A stretch of DNA of 64,000 bases from Acididesulfobacillus acetoxydans. GTDB taxonomy: Bacteria > Bacillota > Desulfitobacteriia > Desulfitobacteriales > Desulfitobacteriaceae. Made by a program: the position numbers and the translations under genes. Positions 8,116 to 64,000 of the stretch are shown here, one piece after another. Numbering within the stretch: position 1 is the stretch's first letter; each line of letters opens with the position of its first letter. Where the stretch lies: positions 1,612,001-1,676,000 of the forward strand of contig NZ_LR746496.1 in the NCBI RefSeq assembly GCF_902729405.1, in the 5' to 3' direction. The notes beneath the pieces are model-generated. The model made no database searches, was not told where the DNA came from, and saw only the letters and a program-made list of their open reading frames with translations.

Positions 8116-9064
8116 AATCCGCCTCCGGCACGATGTCGTCGAAATCACGCCCGGTCCGTTCCAACAGGATATCGGCCATAGCCGGCACCAGGTGGAAGTA
8201 GTACTTAGTACTCTCCAGCGAAGCGTGGCCCATGCTCTTGCTCAGGTACACGAGTTTCGAAAAGAACTCGAAGCCTTCCCCGATCCATTGGTTGATGTTT
8301 TCCACAGCGTAGTTGTGGCGGAGTCCGTACGCTGTGGCATGCGGTGTGTTGTGCTTGTGCCAAAGCTTGCGAAAATTGTATACCACCCATCCATTCGTGA
8401 GAAATGAACCTTTTGCGGAAGGGAAGAAATACTTCCGCCCCGGGTGCAGCGCCTGGATTGCGGCATTGTACCTCCTTAGCAGGTCCAGCATGGTGTCATG
8501 GAGAACGATAAAGTGCTGGGAATGGCCCTTGGAATAGTGGATGATGAGAACGCCCTGGACTAGATCGACGTCACCCACCTGGAGCATTCTCGCCTCGTTG
8601 GTCCTTATCCCGCTGCTATACAGGAGTCGAAAGAATACCGGCACGACAATTCTGCGAGTGAGTACCACAAGAGTGCGGGGCGTGGACGGCAGACTGTCAC
8701 AGGCCTTGAAGAAGCATTCCAGCTCGAATTCCGTGAAAGCATGGGGTATGTAGGTGCGGGGTTCCCTCTTCGGAATGTTCGGCCCCACGACATCCGCCAT
8801 TTCCCGATCTCTCAGGTAGCGGGCGAAGTTCGAGATGACAAATATCCTCGTCCTGCAACTATTGTTTGTCTCTGTGGTGCGCTGCGTGCACCAACCGTCC
8901 ACTATTTCCTGGGTCAGCGTCTCCGCTTCCGGAAACGACTGGGTGCAATAGCTGTCGAAAAGGAACAAGTTGTGCTCATATGTCTCGTTCCATCGCCCGG
9001 ACGCTTTCTGAAAGGCGATGAACGCTTCCATCAAAGGGGTAAGAAAGGACTGAAACCTACGCAT
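8102..9064 (-). CDS. RIT tyrosine recombinase, middle gene
   Basis: 320 aa from the ATG at 9064, which overlaps the stop of the first gene (ATGCGTAG) and is preceded by GAGGGGG; the longer frame from 9172 is rejected. Catalytic features are LYSSGIRTNEARML (Arg), the box-II region TAYGLRHNYAVENIN, and GHASLESTKYYFHLVP (His and Tyr). Box II reads YxxRH instead of the usual HxxRH, so one catalytic histidine is replaced by tyrosine, a substitution seen in some active recombinases. The gene is the central member of the trio. Confidence 0.85.
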   Translation of the reverse strand: MRRFQSFLTPLMEAFIAFQKASGRWNETYEHNLFLFDSYCTQSFPEAETLTQEIVDGWCTQRTTETNNSCRTRIFVISNFARYLRDREMADVVGPNIPKREPRTYIPHAFTEFELECFFKACDSLPSTPRTLVVLTRRIVVPVFFRLLYSSGIRTNEARMLQVGDVDLVQGVLIIHYSKGHSQHFIVLHDTMLDLLRRYNAAIQALHPGRKYFFPSAKGSFLTNGWVVYNFRKLWHKHNTPHATAYGLRHNYAVENINQWIGEGFEFFSKLVYLSKSMGHASLESTKYYFHLVPAMADILLERTGRDFDDIVPEADYEEG

Positions 9065-10289
9065 CGGCGAACACCCCCTCGGACACTGGAAAACGGGCTG
9101 TGCTAAGGGCGCATTCCTTAAGATGGACGAAATCTGCCGAGAGGTAGGTCTCCAACGATTCAGGCTCAGCATGTCCGAGTGTGTCGCTAATCACCGCTTG
9201 GGGCACCCCGTTGCCCAAAAGGGTTGTCGCAAGATGGTGACGGAAGATATGGAAACCTTTTCTGTCCCCTTTCGATTGTCGTATGCTCGCCTTCTCCATA
9301 ATTCGAGCCGCCACCCTCCAAATGTTGGCGCTTTCCATCCCTTTGTAAGGCCCTTTCTGGGTCAGGAATAGGATTGGGCAATCCACTGAGGGACGCTCCT
9401 CATTTAGGTAATCGTAGATGGCGTTACCAACTGTGGCACTCAGAGGGAGTTCCAGGGGTTCCGCAGTCTTCTGCTGTTTGATCCTTATGAGATCGCATTC
9501 CCAGTCGATCGAAGCCCGTTCCATGGCAGCAATGTCGCAGGACCGCAAGCCGGTATAGTAGGCAAGTTTCCCGATCGCCCTGTCGCGCAGAGTAAGTGAA
9601 TTGGTCATATCATCCATCGCGTCGAGAAAATACTGCGTCTCCTGTGGTGTAAGGTATTGTATGTTCTTTCTTGCCTCCCGCGTCGCGGGGAGGAAGGACA
9701 GCACTTTCTTGCAGGCATTCGGGTTCAGGGGAGTACAAACCTTAAGGAAAGCAGAGATACAGTTTCTGTTAGCATGGCTTTTGAGCCGTTCTCCTTCCGG
9801 GGACACAAAAACAGACATCACTACTTCCTCCGCGATGTCATCCAGTTTGCTGATTCCGGTCTCCTGTAGTGAGAGCAGGAAGGCGGCAGCGTTTTGAGAT
9901 TCCGTGCGTATTGAGGACTCTTTCTTGCCGCGTTTTCTCTCCACCGTGCTGTGGTAGTCTATCAGTGACCTGAACTCGGCTACCAGCTTTGGGTATGCGC
10001 CCCTTTCTAAAAGTCCCGACCACTTCCCGTCGGGATATTTGCCGTTAAGGTCGAATTCCTTAATGGCGCCGATGAATGCGCGCCTTTTTTCGAGACTGCC
10101 AGGGGATAACGGAGTTGCTTTGTAGTCCTTGTACACGTCACTGTAGCAGTCCCAGTCTTTGGAATCTGCTTCCGCCAAGATCTTCTGGATTTCCTTCTGC
10201 AACCTACCGATGTAGTCTTTCGAGTAACCGGCAGCTTCCATGTAGGAAATTAGCTTAGGATGGTTGTTTCTTAGATATTCCACATTCAT
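9057..10289 (-). CDS. RIT tyrosine recombinase, first gene
   Basis: 410 aa starting at the ATG at 10289, just inside the right inverted repeats, with GATAGGAGGTCATCCAT on the coding strand as its ribosome binding site. Catalytic motifs are YYTGLRSCDIAAME (Arg), GFHIFRHHLAT (HxxR), and LGHAEPESLETYLSAD (His and Tyr). It has a longer N-terminal DNA-binding region than the other two. It overlaps the middle gene by 8 nt. Probably all three genes are read from a promoter in the right end of the element. Confidence 0.87.
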   Translation of the reverse strand: MNVEYLRNNHPKLISYMEAAGYSKDYIGRLQKEIQKILAEADSKDWDCYSDVYKDYKATPLSPGSLEKRRAFIGAIKEFDLNGKYPDGKWSGLLERGAYPKLVAEFRSLIDYHSTVERKRGKKESSIRTESQNAAAFLLSLQETGISKLDDIAEEVVMSVFVSPEGERLKSHANRNCISAFLKVCTPLNPNACKKVLSFLPATREARKNIQYLTPQETQYFLDAMDDMTNSLTLRDRAIGKLAYYTGLRSCDIAAMERASIDWECDLIRIKQQKTAEPLELPLSATVGNAIYDYLNEERPSVDCPILFLTQKGPYKGMESANIWRVAARIMEKASIRQSKGDRKGFHIFRHHLATTLLGNGVPQAVISDTLGHAEPESLETYLSADFVHLKECALSTARFPVSEGVFADA

Positions 10290-11279: not shown

Positions 11280-11600
11280 TCAACTCCTTATTGGTAGTTT
11301 TAACCATTTACACAAAACTTCATACGTCCTCCCCATACACAAGCGTATTTTATGTACCTTCTCCGCAAACGTTCTTTCCGGCAAACTGTCAAATCCGCCT
11401 AACCAGGGTAATGACACAGAAAGAGCTTTTGCAAGTCTGGCTAAGGTATCTATTGTCGGCTGATAATGCCCCTGTTCAAGTCTCGGAAGGTAAGTTTCAG
11501 CTATCCCAGTTTGCCTCGCAACAGCCGCTAAGGTAAGGTTCTTGCTGATTCGTGCGAGTCGAATGCGCTCGCCAACGGTGTTTCCTTGCAGATTTGACAC
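11280..11600 (-). pseudogene. two-HTH XRE-type regulator, interrupted by IS256
   Basis: From a possible GTG at 11600 the minus strand encodes an intact HTH_3 domain (VGERIRLARISKNLTLAAVA, then GIAETYLPRLEQGHYQPTID) followed by a linker LPERTFAEKVHKIRLCMG that is shared with 58429-58719. The related copy continues into a second HTH (MTKRSFAKHLGVDEQTVRHW), but here the sequence diverges at about 11333 into the IS256 end. The last residues (TYEVLCKWLKLPIRS) are therefore insertion-derived. An upstream extension of the frame to 11744 has no family support. Confidence 0.65.
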
Positions 11601-43788: not shown

Positions 43789-44907
43789 GTGATGAATTCA
43801 ATGGTGGAAAATAGTAATGATTGGAAACTAGGATATGTGCTTGCAAATCTAAAAATTAAAGAACCAGTTGAATCCAACTCGGGTGCTATAGCACTGGTGC
43901 CCTTTAATGACCGACGGCTCACGGGGATTCAGACAGCTTCAAATGGAGCCAAAAAACTTTTAAATGGATTTCATGACATGTATGGGAAACCAACCTGTCC
44001 ATCCGCTATAATCTATTATGAAAGTGCTCCCGAAGGCGTAAAATCCATACCTGCCATGGTAGACTTTCGTAATTGTGTGGCTATGTCTTACATTTTACCT
44101 GGATGGGGTCAGATGGACTTTGCACAGATAAGTAGTCCATCTAATCCTTTGTGGTCGGACTTTTTCGACTTTTATCCTGCGTTAGTTGACTCGCGCGATG
44201 CTATTTCTTCTATAAATCCGGCACAAGAGATTTTTGGTGGGAAAAATGCGCCTTTCGAAGGAATGTCATCTCCATATGTAACGCAACCCCCTGGGGAATT
44301 TATCGTCGATACAAACCTGCTTAGCTTACTTATTTCCAAATGGGAACAGCGCTATGTAAGTCCGGGAACTGATAAGTGGGATGGACGGAAACTTTTTCGT
44401 TCTTTGGAAATGGCTTATCGAGTACTTTCACTCCCAGTAAAGAATGAAGGCAGCATACATGACTTTGGTTCTTCAATAGCTCTTTGGGTAAGTGCCTTTG
44501 AAATCCTTGCTCACCCTGAAGATGGGAAAGTAGACAAAACCGTTGTATTTGAACTCTTGCGTAAGGCACCGTCGTGGTATTATGAAGAGTTACTCGACAA
44601 GCGTTTTGAAGTCCAGACACGTAAAGGGAAATTGTCCGCTACATTAGTGGAGCGACTTTATGATGATTTATATAACGCCAGAAATGCGTTCCTTCATGGC
44701 AATACCATTGACGTGGATGTTTGGCGATATAAAGGCAAGACAATTCAAATTGCTTTAGAAAATCTCGCACCAGTTCTATATCGTACGGCCTTAATGTCCT
44801 ATCTGGGAGGGCCCCTACCTACCTCAGAAACAGATGACGACATAATTCGAGCCTACTGCGATCAAATTTACGAAGATTTTCTAATGCAAGTTTTGGATGT
44901 TCAGTGA
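43789..44907 (+). CDS. HEPN-motif protein (Apea-like), possible defence protein
   Basis: 372 aa. Near the C-terminus a helical region has RLYDDLYNARNAFLHGNTID. This contains an Rx4H motif (Arg298, His303) of HEPN ribonucleases of the Apea-like type, preceded by a helix with SIALWVSAFEILAHPEDG. The N-terminal 170 residues are unrecognised. HEPN proteins are often toxin or abortive-infection RNases. The start has no strong ribosome binding site. The final codons lie inside a repeat that is the end of an IS66-DruA-like element, so the natural C-terminus may be altered. It lies in the island downstream of the R-M genes. Confidence 0.55.
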   Translation: MMNSMVENSNDWKLGYVLANLKIKEPVESNSGAIALVPFNDRRLTGIQTASNGAKKLLNGFHDMYGKPTCPSAIIYYESAPEGVKSIPAMVDFRNCVAMSYILPGWGQMDFAQISSPSNPLWSDFFDFYPALVDSRDAISSINPAQEIFGGKNAPFEGMSSPYVTQPPGEFIVDTNLLSLLISKWEQRYVSPGTDKWDGRKLFRSLEMAYRVLSLPVKNEGSIHDFGSSIALWVSAFEILAHPEDGKVDKTVVFELLRKAPSWYYEELLDKRFEVQTRKGKLSATLVERLYDDLYNARNAFLHGNTIDVDVWRYKGKTIQIALENLAPVLYRTALMSYLGGPLPTSETDDDIIRAYCDQIYEDFLMQVLDVQ

Positions 44908-44985
44908 ACATGTAGAAGTTAACCGGGCCGGACTTAGTCCGACCCAGTGAGAATTTAACGGGTTCCTATGGAGGGGACAGTAGTA
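44895..44985 (+). repeat. end of IS66-DruA-type element, remnant 1
   Basis: Contains ATGTTCAGTGAACAT (44897-44911), the stem GGGCCGGACTTAGTCCGACC and GAGAATTTAACG, matching the left end and the 3' end of druA at 20996-21100. Only about 90 bp remain. Confidence 0.7.
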
Positions 44986-44987
44986 AT

Positions 44988-45314
44988 ATGGGCTTCTCTC
45001 CACCCCACAACAGAAAATCCCTGCTACTCGCAGTAGCCCTGGCCGTTCTCACCCTTCTTGACGGCGCGCTAACGCTCTGGGGGCTTCGTCTTGGCGCAAT
45101 CGAGGAGGCCAATCCCTTGATGCGATGGTTGATCGACCAAAACGCCGTCGCGTTCATGGCGGTCAAGCTGGCACTGCCGGTCCTCCTGGGGGTCCTGCTG
45201 TGGCGGATAGGAAACAGGCCGCACGCATTGGTTTCTCGGCTGCTGGTTATTGCGGTGTTGGCATATGGCGTGGTTCTAGTGACTCATGCCCAGTGGATTC
45301 TGCGCGGGGGATAA
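44988..45314 (+). CDS. DUF5658-like small membrane protein, copy 1
   Basis: 108 aa with GGAGGGGA 12 nt upstream. It has three to four hydrophobic helices: LLLAVALAVLTLLDGALTLW, FMAVKLALPVLLGVLLW and LLVIAVLAYGVVLVTHAQW. The segment LRLGAIEEANPLMRWLI is typical of DUF5658. The protein is probably in the inner membrane. A second copy at 57641 differs at a few positions. It starts module B. Confidence 0.7.
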   Translation: MGFSPPHNRKSLLLAVALAVLTLLDGALTLWGLRLGAIEEANPLMRWLIDQNAVAFMAVKLALPVLLGVLLWRIGNRPHALVSRLLVIAVLAYGVVLVTHAQWILRGG

Positions 45315-45345
45315 TGGAACACCGGGGAAGGAATCTAGGAAACTT

Positions 45346-45582
45346 ATGGACAGCGTCGGTCAATTATTGGCACGACTACGTGGGGACAAGGGCCTCTCCC
45401 AGGCAGAACTGGCTAAACTGGTCGGGACAACCGCGAATCACATCTGCGATCTGGAGTGCGGGAAGCCGGGCAGTATTGCACTTTCCGCGAAGCTGGCAGT
45501 GGTGCTCGACGTGCCTCTGGAAAAAGTGTACAAGAAAGAGAAGGGGAGGCAACCGCAAAATGAAAAAACAAACGCTGATTGA
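45346..45582 (+). CDS. XRE-family HTH protein, copy 1
   Basis: 78 aa. HTH_3 domain covering almost the whole protein: LLARLRGDKGLSQAELAKLV, GTTANHICDLECGKPGSIAL, and LAVVLDVPLEKVY. ATG at 45346 follows GGGGAAGGAATCTAGG. The C-terminal 15 residues are polar. Its stop overlaps the next small gene. It probably regulates this module. Confidence 0.8.
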   Translation: MDSVGQLLARLRGDKGLSQAELAKLVGTTANHICDLECGKPGSIALSAKLAVVLDVPLEKVYKKEKGRQPQNEKTNAD

Positions 45583-45727
45583 GATCAACGACTGCGTGGA
45601 AACCGACCTGAGCCATGATCAGTGGCTCGACGACTTCATCGACTGGCTGGAGTCACGTGGTGAGTATTTTGGCGGAGGGACGAAGGACGTGACGAGCGAA
45701 GAGGTAACATACGAAGAGAATGAGTAA
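45560..45727 (+). CDS. small acidic protein, 55 aa, copy 1
   Basis: ATG at 45560, GGGGAGG upstream. It reads MKKQTLIEINDCVETDLSHD then WLDDFIDWLESRGEYFGGGT and ends in an acidic tail. It overlaps the HTH gene by 23 nt. The second copy has lost its first 16 codons through a deletion. Function is unknown. Confidence 0.55.
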   Translation: MKKQTLIEINDCVETDLSHDQWLDDFIDWLESRGEYFGGGTKDVTSEEVTYEENE

Positions 45728-45845
45728 CCGTATATACCTGTTCTCCTCAAAAAGAGGAGATCCCGAAACCACAACGGGAAGCCAAGATCGGCACTTGGGT
45801 GAACAATTTCTGGGCTTGCGGCGGGTTACGATTCTACCACCCCGG
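45720..45845 (+). pseudogene. fourth small ORF of module B, frameshifted copy
   Basis: ATG at 45720 overlaps the stop of the acidic gene. Compared with the intact copy at 58313, two extra bases (CGTATATACC versus CGTATAACC) shift the frame. The downstream frame still encodes AKIGTWVNNFWACGGLRFYH before a stop. Confidence 0.45.
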
Positions 45846-45971
45846 CTAGCTAGCATAGCACTAGCACCGTTGGGCACAGTGCGGAGAAAGGCATCTTGTC
45901 TGGACCGAGTTAAGCAGGAACTCCTGGTGGGTACGTATAATGGGTGTTATACTTCTTTTGGAGATGATTAA
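45846..45971 (+). other. short intergenic stretch upstream of DUF3795 gene
   Basis: Holds TATAAT near 45938 and GGAG 9 nt before the ATG at 45972, a plausible promoter region, although a clear -35 box is not visible. Confidence 0.3.
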
Positions 45972-55362: not shown

Positions 55363-55626
55363 ATGAAAAAAGGTTCTATAGACCTTAGCGGACTAAAAGG
55401 TTTAATTAAACAGTTGGAAGAAGAAACAAAAATCCAATCAATTTGGCGTCCTGGGGTTTGGTCATATGTTAAAAGGAAAGATAGTTATCGGGTTTACTAC
55501 AGCAACAATTATAATTATGATTTTACAGCTAAGTTACCAAATAACAGTGAAGTGGAAGATTATTTAAAATACTTATCCTTGATTCCCGGCAAAAATTATA
55601 CCTACAGGACTTTTGATTTCATTTAG
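55363..55626 (+). CDS. hypothetical protein, 87 aa
   Basis: ATG at 55363; it reads MKKGSIDLSGLKGLIKQLEE, then SYRVYYSNNYNYDFTAKLPN, with many aromatic residues. AT-rich. No strong ribosome binding site. No family recognised. It ends about 80 bp before the IS1634-type element. Confidence 0.4.
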   Translation: MKKGSIDLSGLKGLIKQLEEETKIQSIWRPGVWSYVKRKDSYRVYYSNNYNYDFTAKLPNNSEVEDYLKYLSLIPGKNYTYRTFDFI

Positions 55627-55707: not shown

Positions 55708-55751
55708 CCCCTCGCTTGTAGGTATAATAATTTATACCTACAAGCGAGGGG
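55708..55751 (+). repeat. perfect 19-bp inverted repeat at left end of IS1634-type element
   Basis: Arms CCCCTCGCTTGTAGGTATA and TATACCTACAAGCGAGGGG with a 6-nt loop ATAATT. The right arm contains the element tip (compare GTGTAGGTATAATTAT at 57350). The transposase GTG lies 10 bp further on. Confidence 0.8.
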
Positions 55752-57365
55752 AGGGGTTACCGTGACTTCCATCATTAGGCAAAAGGTTGGGGATAAGATT
55801 TATCTTTACGAGTCAGTTTCTTTTCGCAATGCCGACGGCAAGCCGAGAAACAAACGTGTCCCTATCGGCAAAATTAATCCCATAACCGGAAATCCGGTGT
55901 ATAAGCCTGAATACCTGGCCCGTATGGCTGAACAAGGAACTCCCATTGAAATACCAGCAACCAACATGACCTTTTCTATTGAGGAGATCCAGCGTTCATC
56001 CATCAAGGATTATGGAGCCTTTTATCTCTTTCAGAGCATTGCGCAAAGCATTGGATTGCTCAGGGCTCTGGAGAGAGCCTTACCGAATTACTGGCAAGAG
56101 GTATTCAATCTGGCCTGTTACCTTATTTCCTCCGGAGATCCGTTTCTTTATTGTGAGGATTGGATTAACAGTACCGAATGCCTTCCGGTCGGCAGCATGT
56201 CGTCGCAACGCATCAGTGAATTGTTGGCGGCCATAAGCCCAGACTCAAGAGAGGCTTTTTATCAGGAATGGTGCCAGTGCCGGAGTGAACAGGAATACCT
56301 TGCCCTCGACATCACCTCTGTCTCCTCCTATTCTAACTTGATTGAAGACGTTGAATGGGGATACAACCGGGACAAGGAAGCGCTTCCCCAAATCAACCTT
56401 TGCATGCTGATGGGGGAAAAATCAGGGCTTCCTATCTATCAGACCGCGTACAGCGGCAGCCTCAAGGATGTCTCAACGTTGAAAACTACCTTGTCCAAAA
56501 TGAATGCCTTATCGAAAGGTAAACCCACCCTGATTGTGATGGACAAGGGTTTCTTCAGTACCAAAAATGTAAACGCCATGTTGAATGATGCGGCCAAACT
56601 ACGCTTCGTCATCTCGGTTCCCTTCACCTCCGGCTTTGCGAAAAAGCAGGTGGAAAGCGAACGCAAAGATATTGACAGCCTTCAGAACACAATGGTTTTA
56701 GGGGAAGATTCTGTTCGCGGGGTCACCAAACTTAGAGCGTGGAACAAAGACCATAAGATTTATACGCATGTTTACTATAACGCCATGAAGGCGATGAAGC
56801 TTCGCGAGAACCTTTATGCGCATGTCGCACTTCTGAAAGAACGGGCAGAGGCCCATCCTGCAGCTCACCTGCAGGAAGAAGAATATAGCAAATACCTTCT
56901 CATCCGCAACTCGGAGAAATCTCCCTCAGGCTATACCGTCAGCATTAAAGAGGAGGCCATCAGACAGGAGCTGGAGACAGCCGGTTGGATGATCCTCATA
57001 ACGAATGATGTGGCCAACGCTAAAGCAGCTCTCCGAATATACCGGGAAAAAGATGTTGTGGAAAAGGGCTTCCTTCGCTTAAAAAATAGTCTAGACCTTG
57101 GAAGATTAAGGGTACATAAGGACGGTATTATGCAGAACAAGATCTTCATTGGTTTTATCGCACTCATACTTGCCGCACATATCCACAAGGTCATGCTGGA
57201 AAAGGATCTTTACAAAAAGATGACCATGAAGAAATTGCTCATCACCTTATCTAAATTACGCATCCAAGTAGTAAATGGAACACGAATCCTGTTCCCGCTT
57301 ACTAAAAATCAAAGCACTATCTACAAAGCGTTTAATGTTAAAGAACCCGTGTAGGTATAATTATC
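55727..57365 (+). mobile_element. IS1634-family insertion sequence
   Basis: One transposase gene between tips ATAATTTATACCTACAAG and (inverse of right end) ATAATTATACCTACACGG. Boundaries are approximate. The left flank repeats the inner sequence as an inverted copy. Confidence 0.7.
55762..57354 (+). CDS. IS1634-family (IS4-like) transposase
   Basis: 530 aa from GTG at 55762 (GAGGGG upstream); an upstream extension to 55636 crosses the IS tip and is rejected. The N-terminal part (IIRQKVGDKIYLYESVSFRN, KRVPIGKINPITGNPVYKPE) is typical. DDE residues are Asp in YLALDITSVSSYSNLIE, Asp in LIVMDKGFFSTKNVN, and Glu in the YREKDVVEKGFLRLKN signature. It ends within the right tip. Intact. Confidence 0.9.
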   Translation: MTSIIRQKVGDKIYLYESVSFRNADGKPRNKRVPIGKINPITGNPVYKPEYLARMAEQGTPIEIPATNMTFSIEEIQRSSIKDYGAFYLFQSIAQSIGLLRALERALPNYWQEVFNLACYLISSGDPFLYCEDWINSTECLPVGSMSSQRISELLAAISPDSREAFYQEWCQCRSEQEYLALDITSVSSYSNLIEDVEWGYNRDKEALPQINLCMLMGEKSGLPIYQTAYSGSLKDVSTLKTTLSKMNALSKGKPTLIVMDKGFFSTKNVNAMLNDAAKLRFVISVPFTSGFAKKQVESERKDIDSLQNTMVLGEDSVRGVTKLRAWNKDHKIYTHVYYNAMKAMKLRENLYAHVALLKERAEAHPAAHLQEEEYSKYLLIRNSEKSPSGYTVSIKEEAIRQELETAGWMILITNDVANAKAALRIYREKDVVEKGFLRLKNSLDLGRLRVHKDGIMQNKIFIGFIALILAAHIHKVMLEKDLYKKMTMKKLLITLSKLRIQVVNGTRILFPLTKNQSTIYKAFNVKEPV

Positions 57366-57529
57366 GACGGGATTTTAGGTACTTATCTAAACGCTAAATG
57401 TTGCCTACATGGCTTGGGCTTGTTTGGGGGGGGATGGCCGAAGTCGGGGATAAATATGCAACCAAGCACAGTGTGGAATAAGGCTGTGTTGTGGGTTAAG
57501 TAATGAGAATGAATCTCGGCTTCGACGTA
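57366..57529 (+). other. short intergenic stretch
   Basis: Includes a G8 run near 57427. No gene is recognised. Confidence 0.35.
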
Positions 57530-57640
57530 AATGTTCAATGAACTATTCAATAAACATTTAAAAGTTAACAAAAACGGGCCGGACTTAATCCGACCCGGCG
57601 AGAATGTGACGAAAGTTCCTATGGAGGGGATAGTAGTAAT
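57530..57640 (+). repeat. end of IS66-DruA-type element, remnant 2
   Basis: AAATGTTCAATGAACTATTC, AACATTTAAAAGTTAAC, the stem GGGCCGGACTTAATCCGACC and GAGAATGTGACGAAAGTTCC match 20994-21085 closely, then diverge into the DUF5658 gene start. It begins module B copy 2. Confidence 0.75.
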
Positions 57641-57967
57641 ATGGGCTTTTCTCCACCCCACAACAGAACATCCCTGCTACTCCCAGCAACCCTGGCCGTT
57701 CTCACCCTTCTTGACGGCGCGCTAACGCTCTGGGGGCTTCGTCTTGGCGCAATCGAGGAAGCCAACCCCTTGATGCGATGGTTGATCGACCAAAACGTCG
57801 TGGCGTTCATGGCGGTCAAGCTGGCACTGCCGGTCCTCCTGGGGGTCCTGCTGTGGCGGATAGGAAACAGGCCGCACGCATTGGTTTCTCGGCTGGTGGT
57901 TATAGGGGTGTTGGCATATGGCGTGGTCCTCGTGACTCATGCCCAGTGGATTCTGCGCGGGGGATAA
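57641..57967 (+). CDS. DUF5658-like small membrane protein, copy 2
   Basis: 108 aa with TGGAGGGGA upstream. Near-identical to 44988-45314, differing at about eight residues (for example NRTSLLLPATLAVLTLLDGA). Same hydrophobic helices and LRLGAIEEANPLMRWLID segment. Confidence 0.7.
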   Translation: MGFSPPHNRTSLLLPATLAVLTLLDGALTLWGLRLGAIEEANPLMRWLIDQNVVAFMAVKLALPVLLGVLLWRIGNRPHALVSRLVVIGVLAYGVVLVTHAQWILRGG

Positions 57968-57998
57968 TGGAACACCGGGGAAGGAATCTAGGAAACTT

Positions 57999-58211
57999 AT
58001 GGACAGCGTCGGTCAATTATTGGCACGACTACGTGGGGACAAGGGCCTCTCCCAGGCAGAACTGGCTAAACTGGTCGGGACAACCGCGAATCACATCTGC
58101 GATCTGGAGTGCGGGAAGCCGGGCAGTATTGCACTTCTCGCGAAGCTGGCAGTGGTGCTCGACGTGCCTCTGGAAGAAGTGTGGCTGCGTGGAAACCGAC
58201 CTGAGCCATGA
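57999..58211 (+). CDS. XRE-family HTH protein, copy 2, altered C-terminus
   Basis: 70 aa. Identical HTH domain to the copy at 45346, except ALLAKL for ALSAKL, but a deletion of about 60 bp after LDVPLEEV fuses it to foreign codons (WLRGNRPEP) and removes the start of the next gene. The DNA-binding domain itself is intact. Confidence 0.65.
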   Translation: MDSVGQLLARLRGDKGLSQAELAKLVGTTANHICDLECGKPGSIALLAKLAVVLDVPLEEVWLRGNRPEP

Positions 58212-58320
58212 TCAGTGGCTCGACGACTTCATCGACTGGCTGGAGTCACGTGGCGAATATTTTGGTGGTGGCACGAAGGACGTTACGAGCGAAGAGGTAA
58301 CATACGAAGAGGATGAGTAA
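58186..58320 (+). pseudogene. small acidic protein, copy 2, start deleted
   Basis: The frame retains CVETDLSHDQWLDDFIDWLE and SRGEYFGGGTKDVTSEEVTY but lacks the first codons and ribosome binding site found in the copy at 45560. Confidence 0.5.
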
Positions 58321-58441
58321 CCGTATAACCTGTTCTCCCCAAAAAGAGGAGACCCCGAAAGCACAACGGGAAGCCAAGATCGGCATTTGGGTGAACAACT
58401 TCTGGGCTTGCGGCGGGTTACGATTCTGTCACTCCGGCTGG
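58313..58441 (+). CDS. fourth small ORF of module B, unbroken copy
   Basis: ATG overlaps the previous stop (ATGAGTAA). It reads MSNRITCSPQKEETPKAQRE, AKIGIWVNNFWACGGLRFCH. Homology with the first copy ends near 58441, where the antisense HTH relic begins; the open frame continues artificially to 58714. Function is unknown. Confidence 0.35.
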
Positions 58442-58719
58442 GTGTCTCTATGCTCCCAGATTGACTTATTCTCAATGAGAGCGATAGATCTGCGTGATGG
58501 ATTTTGGTCATTCAACTCCCAGTGCCGGACAGTTTGTTCGTCTACGCCCAGATGCTTTGCGAAGCTTCGTTTGGTCATCCCCATACATAAGCGTATTTTA
58601 TGTACCTTCTCCGCAAAGGTTCTTTCCGGCAAACTGTCAAATCCGCCTAACCAGGGGGGTAATGGCACAGAAAGAGCTTTTGCAAGCCTGGCTAAGGTAT
58701 CTATTGTTGGCTGATGCAT
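58429..58719 (-). pseudogene. two-HTH XRE-type regulator, N-terminally truncated copy
   Basis: Reads HQPTIDTLARLAKALSVPLP, LPERTFAEKVHKIRLCMGMT, then a second HTH (KRSFAKHLGVDEQTVRHWEL). It is homologous to 11333-11500 on the minus strand. The upstream part, which would encode the first HTH, is replaced by a perfect palindrome at 58717-58750. It complements the other copy, which retains the first HTH but loses the second. Confidence 0.65.
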
Positions 58720-58750
58720 ATCAGACCATCCAATTGGATGGTCTGATATG
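58717..58750. repeat. perfect 34-bp palindrome
   Basis: CATATCAGACCATCC AATT GGATGGTCTGATATG reads the same on both strands (15-bp arms plus the self-complementary AATT). It lies between the HTH relic and the catabolic operon, about 122 bp before the kinase start. It could be an operator for a dimeric regulator, a bidirectional terminator stem, or a recombination scar. Confidence 0.75.
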
Positions 58751-58871
58751 TCTTGCTAATGGCTGTTGTTAATTGATTTCCGTTCGGCTATATTTTAAAT
58801 AATTGAAGTCGACAATAATCCTGTGCTTTTGGATTCACCTTCTATGTAATTAAGAAAAGGGGCATCTCGTC

Positions 58872-60275
58872 TTGAAGAAAATAAGAAACGCTAAGGAATT
58901 ACTCGCTCGTGGTGACGTCGAATCGAGGCGGATGGTTTTATCTATTTTGGAACAAGTGCTACAGAGAATGGATTCCTACAATCGGATTAAAGATATCGCA
59001 AAGCTAGACGGGGACGTCCTGCAGATCGGAACAAAAAAGATCAATTTGCAGGAGAAGAAAAGAATATTTCTTCTCGGCGCGGGCAAAGCATGCAACTCGA
59101 TGGCCCGGGCGGTTGAAGACATTTTGGGCGATAGAATTACCAAAGGAATTATTATTGTAAAAGTTCTGGAGCCAACAGAAAAGTTTAAATATTGCGAGGT
59201 GGTCTGCGGCGGACATCCGCTACCGAACGAGGAGGGCCTCAAAGCGGCCGAAGCTATTTTGGAGCTGGTTGAACAAGCTGACGCCAATGATCTGTTTATC
59301 AGCGTCATCAGTGGCGGGAGTTCGGCGTTGATGAGTTGCCCCGTACAAAGCATCAGTCTTGAAGAAGAGCTGAAAGTAACCGATCTGTTGTTGAAATGCG
59401 GGGCAAATATTAATGAAATTAATGCGGTGCGGCGGCATATTTCCCAGGTCAACGGGGGGCGGCTGGCAGAAAAAATTCTCGCCAAGCGGGCTGAGCTGAT
59501 CAACTTTATCATCAGTGATAGCGTAGGGGCAAAGCCGACCGCCGATCGGAGCCGTCCCTGTTTTTTTCAGGGCACTCCTGTAGCGCGTGACCAGACAACA
59601 ATCAAAGATGCTTTAAATACAATCAAGAAGTACAGGCTCGCGGCCGAAGTACCAAAGGCAATCATGGACTATCTTGAGGCAGAAGATGAGTCGCATGAGA
59701 CACCTAAAGAATTAGAGGGGAGGGTTTCGCATTTCGTCCTTGATAAAGTCCCTGATTCCTGTGAAGTTGCAGCTGCGGTCGCGCGGGAAATGGGAATTCC
59801 GTCAATGACGCTGACAACTTATCTTGAAGGAGAGAGTAGGGAAGCCGGAATATTTTTAGCGAGCGTTGCCCGAGAAATACAGACCAACCATCGTCCGCTG
59901 GCAACTCCGTGCGTGTTATTGCTGGCGGGAGAGACTACGACCAAAATAGAAAAAAATGAAAAGTGTGGCAAGGGTGGTCCCTCGCAGGAATTGGCGCTGG
60001 GGTTTGCACTCAAGGCGGAGCTGGTTGAGGGAGTATGTCTTGGAGCGCTGGATACTGATGGCACCGACGGACCGACGGATGCGGCTGGTGCGATTGCCGA
60101 TGCTAAAACGGCCGCGCGGGCTAGGTCGATAGGCTTGGATATGTACAAAGCGACGCTAGAGCATTCGTCTCATTCGTTCTTTGATGGGCTTGGAGACTGC
60201 TTATACACAGGAACAACTGGGACAAATGTCTGTGATTTGAATGTTTTGTATATCCCCAATAAGAGAGAGGCATAA
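58872..60275 (+). CDS. glycerate 2-kinase family protein (GckA/MOFRL type)
   Basis: 467 aa from TTG at 58872 (AAGGGG upstream at 58857-58862). The DUF4147 domain has IFLLGAGKACNSMARAVEDI, VVCGGHPLPNEEGLKAAEAI, LFISVISGGSSALMSCP and INAVRRHISQVNGGRLAEKI. The C-terminal MOFRL region follows: LLLAGETTTKIEKNEKCGKG, GPSQELALGFALK and LGALDTDGTDGPTDAAGA. Known members phosphorylate glycerate (or hydroxypyruvate-derived acids) to 2-phosphoglycerate. The next gene, 16 bp downstream, is an enolase paralogue. Length and motifs are normal, so it is likely an active kinase, possibly for a different 2-hydroxy acid. Confidence 0.88.
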   Translation: MKKIRNAKELLARGDVESRRMVLSILEQVLQRMDSYNRIKDIAKLDGDVLQIGTKKINLQEKKRIFLLGAGKACNSMARAVEDILGDRITKGIIIVKVLEPTEKFKYCEVVCGGHPLPNEEGLKAAEAILELVEQADANDLFISVISGGSSALMSCPVQSISLEEELKVTDLLLKCGANINEINAVRRHISQVNGGRLAEKILAKRAELINFIISDSVGAKPTADRSRPCFFQGTPVARDQTTIKDALNTIKKYRLAAEVPKAIMDYLEAEDESHETPKELEGRVSHFVLDKVPDSCEVAAAVAREMGIPSMTLTTYLEGESREAGIFLASVAREIQTNHRPLATPCVLLLAGETTTKIEKNEKCGKGGPSQELALGFALKAELVEGVCLGALDTDGTDGPTDAAGAIADAKTAARARSIGLDMYKATLEHSSHSFFDGLGDCLYTGTTGTNVCDLNVLYIPNKREA

Positions 60276-60291
60276 GGGAGTTGGATTCACG

Positions 60292-61575
60292 ATGAGTCGT
60301 ATCAAAAATGTTGTACCTCGGCAGATATTTGACACCAAAGGGCGGCCGATGCTGGAGGTTGATATCGTTACCGATAACGGGGCCATGGGACGGGGTTCGT
60401 CCCCTACCGGCACATCGGTGGGGAAACATGAGGCCGTTGTACTTCGTGATATGGATATCTCTTCCTTCGGCGGGCTTGGTGTTTCCCGCGCTATCAAAAA
60501 CATCCAGGAAATCGTAGCGCCGGCAATCATCGGTATGGACGTAAACGAACAAGAACTTATCGATAATACGATAATCGCCCTTGACGGGACAAAAAACAAA
60601 GCGAGACTAGGCGGCAATACGATTTATAGTACGTCGATAGCTGTAGCCAGGGCAGCCGCTTGTAGTAATAACCTCCCGCTTTATCGATACCTGGCGAAGG
60701 GTAAGGAAGTAACTATTCCTGTTCCTACGTTTAATATGATCAACGGAGGGTCTTACGGAGCAAGCAGACTGGATTTTCAGGAATTTATGATTGTTCCTTG
60801 GAAAGCACAAACCTTCCGGGAGGCGATGCAGATAGCCGTGGAAGTGTTTTATATACTGCCTGATATTATTCGGAAAAAAGGGGGCCTTGTTAATACTGGC
60901 AATTATTCCGGTTATGGCGCTCCCGTACAAGATCCTGCAGCCGTGCTAGATATTTTGAGCACAGCGGCGGAAGCAGCAGGGTATCTTGACAAGATAGTTT
61001 TTGCGCTTGATTGCGCGGCCAGTGAAATATACGACGAAACTAGAAATAAATACAGATTTATGGAGCAGTTTGTAACTCGGGAAGACATCATAAATGTTAT
61101 AAAAGAGTTATCAAAAAAATACCCTCTGTTATTTGTGGAAGATATTCTTCAAGAAGATGATTTTGCCGGTTTTGCACTTGCCACAGAACAGTTATATCCG
61201 ACATTGGTCGTGGGGGACGACCTGTTTACTACCAACATCGAAAGAGTAAAGACCGGAATAAAAATGCATGCGGGTAACGGCATTATTTTAAAACCTAATC
61301 AGGTCGGCTCGTTGACGGAAGCACTGGTAACTAAAGTCTATGCCAGCGAACGAGGTTTTACCGTTATTCCTTCCGGCCGGGCCGGCGGTGCAGTCGATGA
61401 TCCGATCCGGGAAATAGCTGTCGGCATAAAAGCGCCATTGGTAAAAGTAGGTGCGCCGCGGAGCGGTGAAAGGATTAACTCAATGAACCAGCTGCTGCGG
61501 ATTGAGGAAACACTGACCGGCCCCAGGACGTTGGCCGATATCGGGGCTATTATTGCGGAATTTCGGCTTGACTAA
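60292..61575 (+). CDS. enolase-superfamily paralogue with altered active site
   Basis: 427 aa from ATG at 60292 with AAGGGAG upstream. The fold signature of true enolases is clear: QIFDTKGRPMLEVDIVTDNG, FQEFMIVPW, VFALDCAASEIYD, VVGDDLFTTN, ILKPNQVGSLTEALVT and SMNQLLRIEETL. Metal ligands (Asp240, Glu283, Asp309/310) and both lysines (Lys334, Lys385) are kept. However, the catalytic GDEGGFAP motif is replaced by GNYSGYGAP, the GGSH histidine is Tyr155, and the SHRSGET loop reads PSGRAGGAV. A canonical 2-phosphoglycerate dehydratase role is therefore doubtful. The enzyme may act on a related phosphorylated acid made by the upstream kinase. It starts 16 bp after the kinase stop and ends 14 bp before hyuA. 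Confidence 0.88.
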   Translation: MSRIKNVVPRQIFDTKGRPMLEVDIVTDNGAMGRGSSPTGTSVGKHEAVVLRDMDISSFGGLGVSRAIKNIQEIVAPAIIGMDVNEQELIDNTIIALDGTKNKARLGGNTIYSTSIAVARAAACSNNLPLYRYLAKGKEVTIPVPTFNMINGGSYGASRLDFQEFMIVPWKAQTFREAMQIAVEVFYILPDIIRKKGGLVNTGNYSGYGAPVQDPAAVLDILSTAAEAAGYLDKIVFALDCAASEIYDETRNKYRFMEQFVTREDIINVIKELSKKYPLLFVEDILQEDDFAGFALATEQLYPTLVVGDDLFTTNIERVKTGIKMHAGNGIILKPNQVGSLTEALVTKVYASERGFTVIPSGRAGGAVDDPIREIAVGIKAPLVKVGAPRSGERINSMNQLLRIEETLTGPRTLADIGAIIAEFRLD

Positions 61576-61589
61576 GGGGGGTATATGTA

Positions 61590-63635
61590 ATGTATAGGAT
61601 TGGAATAGACGTGGGCGGTACCTTTACCGATGTAACACTTTTGAATGCTGATACCGGAAAGTATTATACCTACAAACTGTCATCGACGCCGCACGACCAG
61701 TCAGTGGCGATTATGAACGGGACGAAGGAGATTCTGGAGCTTTATAATATTTCGGCGAGAGATGTTAACTATTTTGGCCATGGCACGACGGTGGCCACTA
61801 ATATAATTATCGAGCGAAAAGGGGCCAAAACGGCGCTACTTACTACGCGTGGCTTTAGGGATATCCTGGAGATCGGGCGTCAGACACGGCCCAGTCTTTA
61901 TAATTTATTTGAGGAGAAACCAGAAACCTTGGTGAAGCGGTCGCTCAGGCGCGAGTTAAACGAGCGCGTCAGATCCGACGGCAGTGTCGCAAAAGCCATT
62001 GAACCGAAAGAAATTATTGCGGCTTTAGAGAAAATAAAGCAGGAAGGTGTCGAATCGCTGGCAGTTTGTTTTTTGTTTTCATTTCTCAACAGTGAAAATG
62101 AAAAAGCAGTTGAAGACTGCATCAAACAAGTCTGGCCGGAAGTTTACTATTCACTATCGTCAGCTATTCTTCCCGAGTTTAGGGAGTTTGAGCGGCTGAG
62201 CACGACGGTAATAAACTCCTATCTTGGTCCGAAGATGAAAATATATATCGACAACATGCAAGAACGGGTTAAAGAAGTGGGTGTCACGGTTGAACCGTAT
62301 ATCACCCAGTCCAACGGCGGGGTAATGTCGATCAGCTCCACGGTGGAGACGCCGGTCCAGACCGCGTTGTCCGGTCCGAGCGCAGGTGTTGTCGGAGCGA
62401 TTTATGTGGCCGAGTCCGCGGGATTTAAAAACATTATCACTTATGACATGGGCGGCACCAGCACGGACGTTTCGCTGGTGAACAACGGGACGGCCGAATA
62501 TACGACCAAACGCAAGGTTTGCGGTTTGCCGTCGGGTGTGCCGATGATCGATGTTCATGCCGTCGGGGCTGGCGGGGGAAGCATTGCCCGGGTTGACAGC
62601 GCGGGAGCCCTCAAGGTTGGTCCGGAAAGCGCCGGGTCGGTACCTGGCCCGGCTTGCTACGGCTTGGGCGGGGATAATCCCGTAGTTACCGACGCCAATC
62701 TGGTGCTCGGGCGCATAAACCCCAAGCATTTTCTGGGTGGGCGGATGCAAATCAAGGCGAAATACGCCGAAAAAGCAATCCGGGAAAAAGTCGCCGGAAA
62801 GCTTGGGATGTCGGTAGAGGAAGCGGCTCAGGGCATTATCCGCGTCGTCAACTCGAATATGTCCCGGGCAATCCGCGTCATCACCGTCGAACGCGGCTAC
62901 AATCCGTCTGATTTTACGTTGGTAGCCTATGGCGGCGCCGGTCCTTTGCATGCGGTTCACCTGGCCCAGGATATGGGCATCAAAACAGTGCTCATTCCGT
63001 CGGCCCCGGGAGTTCTTTGCGCATTCGGCCTGTTAACGGCCGATATCAAAAAGAGCTATGTCAAGACTTGGCTTTCAAAATACGATGAAGCTGGTCCGGA
63101 ACTTCTCAACAGCATTTTCAAACCGCTTATCAAACAGGGTAATGCTTGGCTTGCGTCCGAGAACGTGCCGGAAGCCAACCGCAAGTTTAATAATATCGTT
63201 GAAATGCGCTACATCGGTCAGAATTACGAACTTCAAGTCAGTGTTCGGTCCGGCGCAATCAGCCAGAGTGATTTCGAGGAGCTTAAAACCAAATTCTTTA
63301 AAGAGCATGAGAAGAACTACGGATATTTCAATCCTACCGCTCCGGTGCAATTTGTCAATTTCCGGACCGAGGCGATCGGCATTGTCGCCAAGCCGAACCT
63401 TGCTACAATCGAAAAGATGACGGATAACATTAAAAAGGCCCTGATCGAAACCAGGGAGGTTTATTTTGCCGAGACGGGGACTATTGACTGTCCGGTATAT
63501 GACCGCTATAAAATCGGCCAGATCGATCGCGTGCAAGGGCCCTGCATTATTGAGCAGATGGATTCCACCACGGTCATTCCCCCCAATACCCATTTTAAAG
63601 TCGATTGTTACGGCAACATCATCGTTACGGTTTGA
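61590..63635 (+). CDS. hyuA: hydantoinase/oxoprolinase family protein, subunit A, second locus
   Basis: 681 aa, ATG with AAGGGGGG upstream. The N-terminal MYRIGIDVGGTFTDVTLLN and FKNIITYDMGGTSTDVSLVN are the two phosphate-binding motifs. AVGAGGGSIARVDSAGAL and AYGGAGPLHAVHLAQDMGIK follow. It clearly belongs to the same family as the protein at 1460 but is only moderately similar. It is followed by hyuB after 25 bp. Cotranscribed with the kinase and enolase-like genes, it probably acts in the same pathway, as an ATP-dependent amidase, lactamase or carboxylase subunit. Confidence 0.93.
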   Translation: MYRIGIDVGGTFTDVTLLNADTGKYYTYKLSSTPHDQSVAIMNGTKEILELYNISARDVNYFGHGTTVATNIIIERKGAKTALLTTRGFRDILEIGRQTRPSLYNLFEEKPETLVKRSLRRELNERVRSDGSVAKAIEPKEIIAALEKIKQEGVESLAVCFLFSFLNSENEKAVEDCIKQVWPEVYYSLSSAILPEFREFERLSTTVINSYLGPKMKIYIDNMQERVKEVGVTVEPYITQSNGGVMSISSTVETPVQTALSGPSAGVVGAIYVAESAGFKNIITYDMGGTSTDVSLVNNGTAEYTTKRKVCGLPSGVPMIDVHAVGAGGGSIARVDSAGALKVGPESAGSVPGPACYGLGGDNPVVTDANLVLGRINPKHFLGGRMQIKAKYAEKAIREKVAGKLGMSVEEAAQGIIRVVNSNMSRAIRVITVERGYNPSDFTLVAYGGAGPLHAVHLAQDMGIKTVLIPSAPGVLCAFGLLTADIKKSYVKTWLSKYDEAGPELLNSIFKPLIKQGNAWLASENVPEANRKFNNIVEMRYIGQNYELQVSVRSGAISQSDFEELKTKFFKEHEKNYGYFNPTAPVQFVNFRTEAIGIVAKPNLATIEKMTDNIKKALIETREVYFAETGTIDCPVYDRYKIGQIDRVQGPCIIEQMDSTTVIPPNTHFKVDCYGNIIVTV

Positions 63636-63660
63636 TAAGTATCGTTAAGGAGTGAACACC

Positions 63661-64000
63661 GTGAGTATAAAATTTGATGGCGTGTTACTCGAGATTATCG
63701 AAAATACTTTCATGTCGATTGCCGAGGAAATGGGGGCAGTCCTGGTAAAATCGGCTTACTCGACCAACATCAAAGAGCGTAAAGATTGCTCGTGCGCCAT
63801 TTTTGACGCCGAAGGTAATACCATCGCTCAGGCTGAACATATCCCTATGCATCTGGGTTCGCTGCTCGGCATGGTCCGGGATATCCGCAAAAATTACGCC
63901 CCAGAGGACATTCATGAGGGAGATATGTTCATCGCTAACGATCCCTATAACGGCGGGGGAACTCATCTGCCCGACATCGCGATTGCCTCGCCGGTCTTCT
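63661..64000 (+). CDS. hyuB: hydantoinase/oxoprolinase family protein, subunit B, second locus, partial
   Basis: Starts at GTG 63661 with AAGGAG 9 nt upstream and runs past the window end; 113 residues are seen. MSIKFDGVLLEIIENTFMSI, KERKDCSCAIFDAEGNTIAQ and IANDPYNGGGTHLPDIAIAS are the diagnostic N-terminal Hydantoinase_B segments. It pairs with HyuA encoded immediately upstream. Confidence 0.92.
   Translation, partial: MSIKFDGVLLEIIENTFMSIAEEMGAVLVKSAYSTNIKERKDCSCAIFDAEGNTIAQAEHIPMHLGSLLGMVRDIRKNYAPEDIHEGDMFIANDPYNGGGTHLPDIAIASPVF

What the first reader, a model, noticed from the sequence alone, without database searches (positions are those of the whole stretch)
58717..58750. Perfect 34-bp palindrome ahead of the kinase/enolase/HyuAB operon
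CATATCAGACCATCC with AATT at its centre is fully self-complementary. Perfect symmetry of this length is unlikely by chance. It could be the operator of the novel operon or the scar of an element.
Basis: seen in the sequence. Interest (0 to 1): 0.5.

Follow-up and report, generated by a model that had tools for sequence, protein, structure and literature searches.

The report
Operator-like palindrome before glycerate-kinase operon
A perfect 34-base mirror-image DNA sequence sits just before a borrowed sugar-acid breakdown operon, exactly where that borrowed DNA joins the chromosome, and is most likely the docking site of the operon's own regulator, a fairly ordinary kind of feature.

Summary
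In detail: window 58717-58750 is a perfect, loopless 34-bp palindrome. It is unique in its genome up to 3 mismatches, absent from 99 relatives, and expected about 4e-6 times per window by chance.
Two facts were added. (1) The DNA left of it is a 5'-truncated XRE-type gene whose two fuller copies elsewhere in the genome diverge from it at 58715-58717, the palindrome's edge. So the palindrome lies at the junction between a chromosomal repeat and an operon whose kinase has only one other match in the order, at 42% identity.
(2) The exact sequence is not conserved, but kinase orthologues 50-52% identical on Rhizobiaceae plasmids have their own long perfect palindromes in the same place (22, 26 and 30 bp, shared core, beside a divergent GntR gene): 4 of 9 loci versus 5 of 868 control windows.
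Best reading: an operator for a GntR-type regulator, probably the MocR-like protein encoded after HyuB. Rivals are a fold-back scar made at the junction, or a hairpin left from a lost neighbour. New member of a known kind, modest interest.

The parts
58717..58750 (.). Perfect loopless 34-bp palindrome (17-nt arms; centre AATT)
   Evidence: unique in genome
58723..58728 (-). Half-site box TGGTCT (minus strand), inverted relative to the next box
   Evidence: resemblance to GntR/MocR boxes (TGG group) from passages of PMC5320631 and PMC4494728
58739..58744 (+). Half-site box TGGTCT (plus strand)
58715..58717 (.). Junction: last positions shared with the two fuller copies of the XRE gene (which continue AATGCCCC...)
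58429..58719 (-). 5'-truncated XRE-family gene; the ATG inside the palindrome is only the first available start, not the original one
58263..58715 (.). Repeat-derived DNA, 94-95% identical to a copy near genome 4,373,645; part also at window 11326-11464
58766..58794 (+). Only sigma-70-like promoter match in 58500-59000: TTGTTA-17-TATATT; would put the palindrome centre near -67
   Evidence: 9 of 12; shuffles give a mean of 1.0 such sites, so weak by itself
58872..60275 (+). Glycerate 2-kinase-like protein (DUF4147 + MOFRL), TTG start
60241..61575 (+). Enolase paralogue
61590..63635 (+). HyuA-type hydantoinase/oxoprolinase subunit
63652..64000 (+). HyuB-type subunit, start (continues beyond the window; followed by the MocR-type regulator at genome 1,677,679-1,679,184 and an MFS transporter)

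Best explanation
The palindrome is a symmetric operator for a dimeric transcription factor of the GntR superfamily, most likely the MocR-type (GntR HTH + aminotransferase-like domain) protein encoded downstream of HyuB. It came in with the kinase/enolase/HyuAB/MocR/MFS cassette. The dimer would bind the two inverted TGGTCT-containing half-sites. Centred near -67 of the only promoter match, it would more likely serve activation (or conditional repression by looping) than simple promoter occlusion. Shown: the palindrome, its place, the regulator gene, and palindromes of the same type before orthologous operons. Inferred: lateral arrival, binding, the identity of the regulator, the sign of regulation, the promoter. 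The junction at its edge is taken as breakage or joining at the base of a pre-existing palindrome.
For: Kinase orthologues (50-52% identity) on Rhizobiaceae plasmids: 4 of 9 loci (4 of 6 distinct upstream regions) have a palindrome with arms of 11 or more and spacer of 3 or less within 250 bp upstream, against 5 of 868 control windows from the same loci. In the three with a divergent GntR gene directly beside the kinase, the palindrome (22, 26, 30 bp, loopless) keeps an invariant core GGCTATTGTCGACAATAGCC while the intergenic DNA around it has diverged. In G050 a 14-bp perfect palindrome precedes the kinase, with a GntR-type gene in the operon. The own cassette encodes a GntR-HTH MocR protein. 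The box TGGTCT fits the TGG group of GntR/MocR motifs and the quoted PdxR consensus AAAGTGGW(-/T)CTA. GGTCTGA recurs in the MocR gene's own upstream region (L038:3447), with a half-site match reached by 9 of 400 random stretches. Loopless centres are in mild excess: 3 of 9 four-base-centred stems of 13 or more, against 9/16 expected for accidental hairpin loops.
Against: The sequence is not conserved before any orthologue examined, and most orthologues have no long palindrome: none of 36 distinct loci (two with short upstream) has a spacerless one longer than 14 bp. MocR proteins mostly favour direct repeats; two inverted boxes make up about 20% of their motifs. The half-site echo before MocR was chosen after the fact and is weak. 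Perfect symmetry over 34 bp exceeds what a dimer needs. The edge coincides with a recombination junction, which an operator does not by itself explain.
Confidence: 0.58

Rival explanations
1. Junction scar: when the cassette was joined to the broken XRE gene, a DNA end folded back (or a polymerase switched strands) and copied about 11-17 nt of the cassette's left end, making a perfect inverted copy that ends where the joining happened. It has no function.
For: The palindrome's left edge (58717) is within 1-2 nt of the point where the truncated XRE gene departs from its two fuller copies. No orphan 5' half of that gene was found elsewhere, so material was lost. Long arms are perfectly matched, as expected of a recent copy.
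Against: A zero spacer with a self-complementary centre is not the usual product of simple fold-back, which needs a loop (general knowledge). Orthologous operons have comparable palindromes, kept in sequence across diverged intergenic DNA.
Confidence: 0.2
2. RNA hairpin: a terminator or transcript-end stem (15 bp, AAUU loop) of a gene that once lay to the left, now lost at the junction, insulating the operon promoter.
For: Stable fold. Another long palindrome in this genome (21-nt arms, L111:10058-10099) lies 11 nt beyond a stop codon. Bacterial perfect inverted repeats peak after stop codons and favour 4-nt spacers (passages of PMC13155455).
Against: No T-run on either side and no terminator match. 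No gene ends at it on either strand now. The loop is self-complementary.
Confidence: 0.12
3. Fused terminal repeats or excision remnant of a small mobile element, or a palindromic target site of one.
For: IS-rich surroundings; long inverted symmetry.
Against: No other copy of the arm beyond chance (4 further hits with 2-3 mismatches against 3 hits of the reversed control). No flanking target duplication seen by eye. No match in plasmids, phages or viral contigs.
Confidence: 0.06

Closest known systems
Palindromes beside FCD-GntR genes before kinase/enolase operons of Rhizobiaceae plasmids (seen here in L172, L173, L180)
   Same: Long perfect loopless palindrome, centre about 115-165 bp upstream of an orthologous kinase, beside a GntR-superfamily regulator gene
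   Different: Different sequence (GGCTATTGTCGACAATAGCC core); the regulator gene is a divergent FCD-GntR, not a downstream MocR. Their operator role is itself inferred
PdxR / MocR-subfamily operators
   Same: TGG-containing boxes; PdxR is the best-scoring NCBIfam relative of the cassette's regulator (below the curated cut-off)
   Different: MocR sites are mostly direct repeats or three-box sites; here two inverted boxes whose centres are 16 bp apart
SdhR (HutC subfamily) operator, a 26-bp palindrome quoted in PMC4494728 (passages)
   Same: Shows that a GntR-family operator can be a long, fully symmetric palindrome
   Different: Unrelated sequence and regulator

Membership tests
GntR-superfamily operator | Inverted half-sites with conserved GT/TGG groups | tested here: inconclusive
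   AGACCA...TGGTCT present, matching the TGG group in passages; but the GT/AC spacing of 2-4 nt usual in FadR/HutC sites is not present
GntR-superfamily operator | GntR-HTH regulator gene linked to the operon | tested here: met
   PF00392 + Aminotran_1_2 in L038:3679-5184, 308 bp after HyuB
GntR-superfamily operator | Site conserved before orthologous operons | tested here: inconclusive
   Sequence not conserved; analogous palindromes in 4 of 9 closest plasmid loci. No orthologue above 52% identity was available
GntR-superfamily operator | Protein binds the site | not testable with these tools
   Needs a binding assay
MocR-subfamily (PdxR-like) operator | Two to four boxes, usually including direct repeats spaced by whole helical turns | tested here: inconclusive
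   TGG[AT]{0,2}CT boxes at 58739 and 58760 (21 bp apart) plus the inverted one at 58728 on the cassette side, but this loose pattern is common (3.57 per kb)
Intrinsic terminator | Stem followed by a T-run | tested here: not met
   0 found in 58500-59000
Mobile-element end or remnant | Other copies of the end sequence, or a target duplication | tested here: not met
   flanks read by eye

The most novel reading that the evidence does not exclude
An operator born at a junction: the recombination that joined the cassette to the chromosome folded back and duplicated a single regulator half-site into a perfect inverted pair, so that lateral gene transfer created its own symmetric control site in one step.
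Probability: 0.08. Interest if true: 0.65.

Novelty: new member of a known kind. Interest (0 to 1): 0.3.

Why it matters
It gives a concrete, testable control site for a recurrent glycerate-kinase/enolase catabolic cassette and its MocR-type regulator. It also shows a case where a long perfect palindrome coincides with the edge of a chromosomal rearrangement, a good place to ask whether such joins can create or preserve operators. Otherwise it is an ordinary regulatory feature.

Tried and rejected
Dispersed repeat or REP-like element: rejected. Known structured RNA: Rfam gave only sub-threshold microRNA models that merely recognise a hairpin. Intrinsic terminator: no match. The AGACCA...TGGTCT inverted repeat upstream of the kinase in G182 (L072) looked like a conserved site but lies inside the upstream gene's coding sequence, so it was dropped. 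The GGTCT inverted repeat upstream of the MFS gene (L038:5362-5367) lies, by my own reading of the sequence, in a remnant resembling an IS3-type transposase start, so it was dropped. One search scanned upstream regions without turning minus-strand loci; it is superseded. A search for the missing 5' half of the XRE gene found only the two known copies plus partial matches to the DNA beyond the gene. MocR relatives in the phylum reach only 35% identity and were not used for motif work. Searching the cassette's DNA in 398 phylum genomes found no close copy. Plasmid kinase hits below 50% identity were not surveyed for palindromes; two archaeal loci were fetched but left out of the count. Paper searches on palindromes and template switching, near-precise excision and glycerate kinase were seen as listings, except PMC13155455 (passages).

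Full report
Observation. The palindrome is real and exactly where it was reported: 58717-58750, 17+17 nt, no spacer. In the window the next longest loopless palindrome has 7-nt arms. Chance expectation is about 4e-6 per window and 2.6e-4 per genome. It is single-copy in the 4.52-Mb genome up to 3 mismatches, and was found in 1 of 100 genomes searched (its own). It has no exact match in genome contigs or viral contigs and no blastn match in plasmids or phages.

How unusual it is in this genome. I surveyed 1.302 Mb (window plus 62 stretches, 2 kb of overlap left out of the total). Loopless palindromes with arms of 7-10 nt occur roughly as often as chance predicts (somewhat more at 9 nt). Above that there are arms of 11, 12, 16, 17 and 21, one each. 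The 21-nt one lies 11 nt beyond the stop codon of a 908-aa repeat-protein gene. The 16-nt one lies about 256 bp upstream of a permease-like gene and is single-copy. Of nine stems of 13 bp or more around a four-base centre, three have a self-complementary centre, more than the one in sixteen expected of accidental hairpin loops. So spacerless palindromes are probably a class of their own.

Left neighbourhood. DNA 58300-58900 was compared with the own genome and 60 relatives; 2 of 61 genomes had matches, the second only two of 28 bases. The left part is repeated: 58263-58715 is 94-95% identical to a copy near 4,373,645, and 58574-58715 is 94% identical to window 11326-11464. Both of those copies continue into the first half of an XRE helix-turn-helix domain (my reading); the window copy does not. 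They depart from it after GGCTGAT at 58715, with at most two further bases shared if a 3-bp gap is allowed. The minus-strand ORF 58429-58719 is therefore a 5'-truncated copy, and the palindrome begins at the break. The lost first half was not found as an orphan elsewhere: one search gave the two known copies plus partial matches to the DNA beyond the gene.

Right neighbourhood. The operon reads kinase (DUF4147/MOFRL, glycerate 2-kinase-like), enolase, HyuA, HyuB, then a MocR-type regulator, then an MFS transporter, then transposase-like genes. The kinase occurs in 2 of 73 genomes of the order, the other at 42% identity, and in 31 of 398 phylum genomes, best other 52%. With the truncated gene on its left and transposases on its right, this looks like a laterally acquired cassette (inference). 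Kinase-enolase pairs recur in relatives, and HyuAB lies next to the pair in G101 and near it in several Rhizobiaceae. Kinase plus enolase would turn glycerate into phosphoenolpyruvate (recalled biochemistry of these families; not tested).

Is the palindrome conserved? As sequence, no. In 36 distinct kinase loci (two with short upstream DNA) the longest upstream inverted repeats were 14+14 with a 2-nt spacer (L067), 13+13 (L064), 12+12 (L062) and 11+11 (L035); none resembles ours. As a type of site, yes in the closest plasmid relatives. Nine plasmid loci at 50-52% identity (rows H1-H9) were fetched. Four of nine, or four of six distinct upstream regions, have a palindrome with arms of 11 or more and spacer of 3 or less within 250 bp upstream: 22 bp (Rhizobium jaguaris), 26 bp (Agrobacterium cucumeris), 30 bp (Rhizobium sp. 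CB3090) and 11+3+11 (Shinella). Control windows from the same loci: 5 of 868. The first three share the core GGCTATTGTCGACAATAGCC, invariant while the intergenic DNA around it varies, and all three have a GntR-family gene immediately beside (FCD-GntR by Pfam in two; 67-81% identical to those in the third). The five loci without such a palindrome had no GntR match adjacent to the kinase (four of them, L176-L179, were taken with only 4 kb of flank). In Shinella the GntR match lies about 1.6 kb upstream. G050 has a 14-bp perfect palindrome that by eye overlaps a promoter-like -10, and a GntR-type gene in the operon.

Interpretation. By this analogy the palindrome is best read as the operator of a GntR-type regulator. 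The cassette encodes one, a MocR-type protein (PF00392 + Aminotran_1_2), nearest by NCBIfam to PdxR but below its cut-off. The inverted TGGTCT boxes fit the TGG group said to be typical of MocR and GntR sites (passages of PMC5320631) and the PdxR consensus AAAGTGGW(-/T)CTA (passages of PMC4494728). The latter paper also quotes a 26-bp palindromic operator for SdhR, so long symmetric operators have precedent. Against it: MocR proteins more often use direct repeats, and two-box inverted sites are about 20% of their motifs. GGTCTGA recurs before the MocR gene at L038:3447; the 13-nt half-site matches there with 3 mismatches, reached by 9 of 400 random stretches. The half-site was chosen after the fact, so I give this little weight. 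The only promoter match (58766-58794) is no better than shuffled sequence gives; if real, the palindrome centre lies near -67.

The junction. That the palindrome's edge is the edge of the rearrangement needs an explanation. Either a pre-existing palindrome was the place of breakage or joining, or the palindrome was made by fold-back or strand switching during joining. The data do not separate these, because no second genome with the same cassette is at hand. The orthologous palindromes tip the balance to a pre-existing operator.

Verdict. Observation confirmed. Operator partly supported (0.58), junction scar 0.20, hairpin of a lost neighbour 0.12, element remnant 0.06. Interest 0.3.

Noticed in passing
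window 55708-55751: Hairpin with 20-nt perfect arms and a TAAT loop near the start of an IS1634-family transposase ORF; its arms contain TTATACCTACA, a sequence that also occurs (with a change) at the element's outer inverted repeats (55577-55606 / 57350-57379).
   Followed up: partly
L111:10058-10099 (genome 790,058-790,099): Loopless palindrome of 42 bp lying 11 nt beyond the stop codon of a 908-aa repeat-protein gene; unlike ours it fits a transcript-end hairpin.
   Followed up: partly
L090:10162-10193 (genome 1,724,162-1,724,193): Loopless 32-bp palindrome with the same AATT centre, between a decayed ORF that looks transposase-like by eye and a permease-like gene; single copy.
   Followed up: partly
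L062, L064, L067 upstream of the kinase: Similar inverted repeats (GCGCCAAAGCA...TGCTTTGGCGC) about 130-170 bp upstream of the kinase match in three genomes; could be another regulator site or a hairpin.
   Followed up: no
L038:7068-8015 and 8174-9829: Two neighbouring near-identical transposase-like ORFs, the first cut short at 315 aa, just after the cassette's MFS gene.
   Followed up: no
window 57527-58439 and 44900-45847, plus genome copies near 1,045,000 and 4,444,000: Repeated block carrying a DUF5658 gene and a small XRE gene, present several times in the genome at 93-96% identity.
   Followed up: partly
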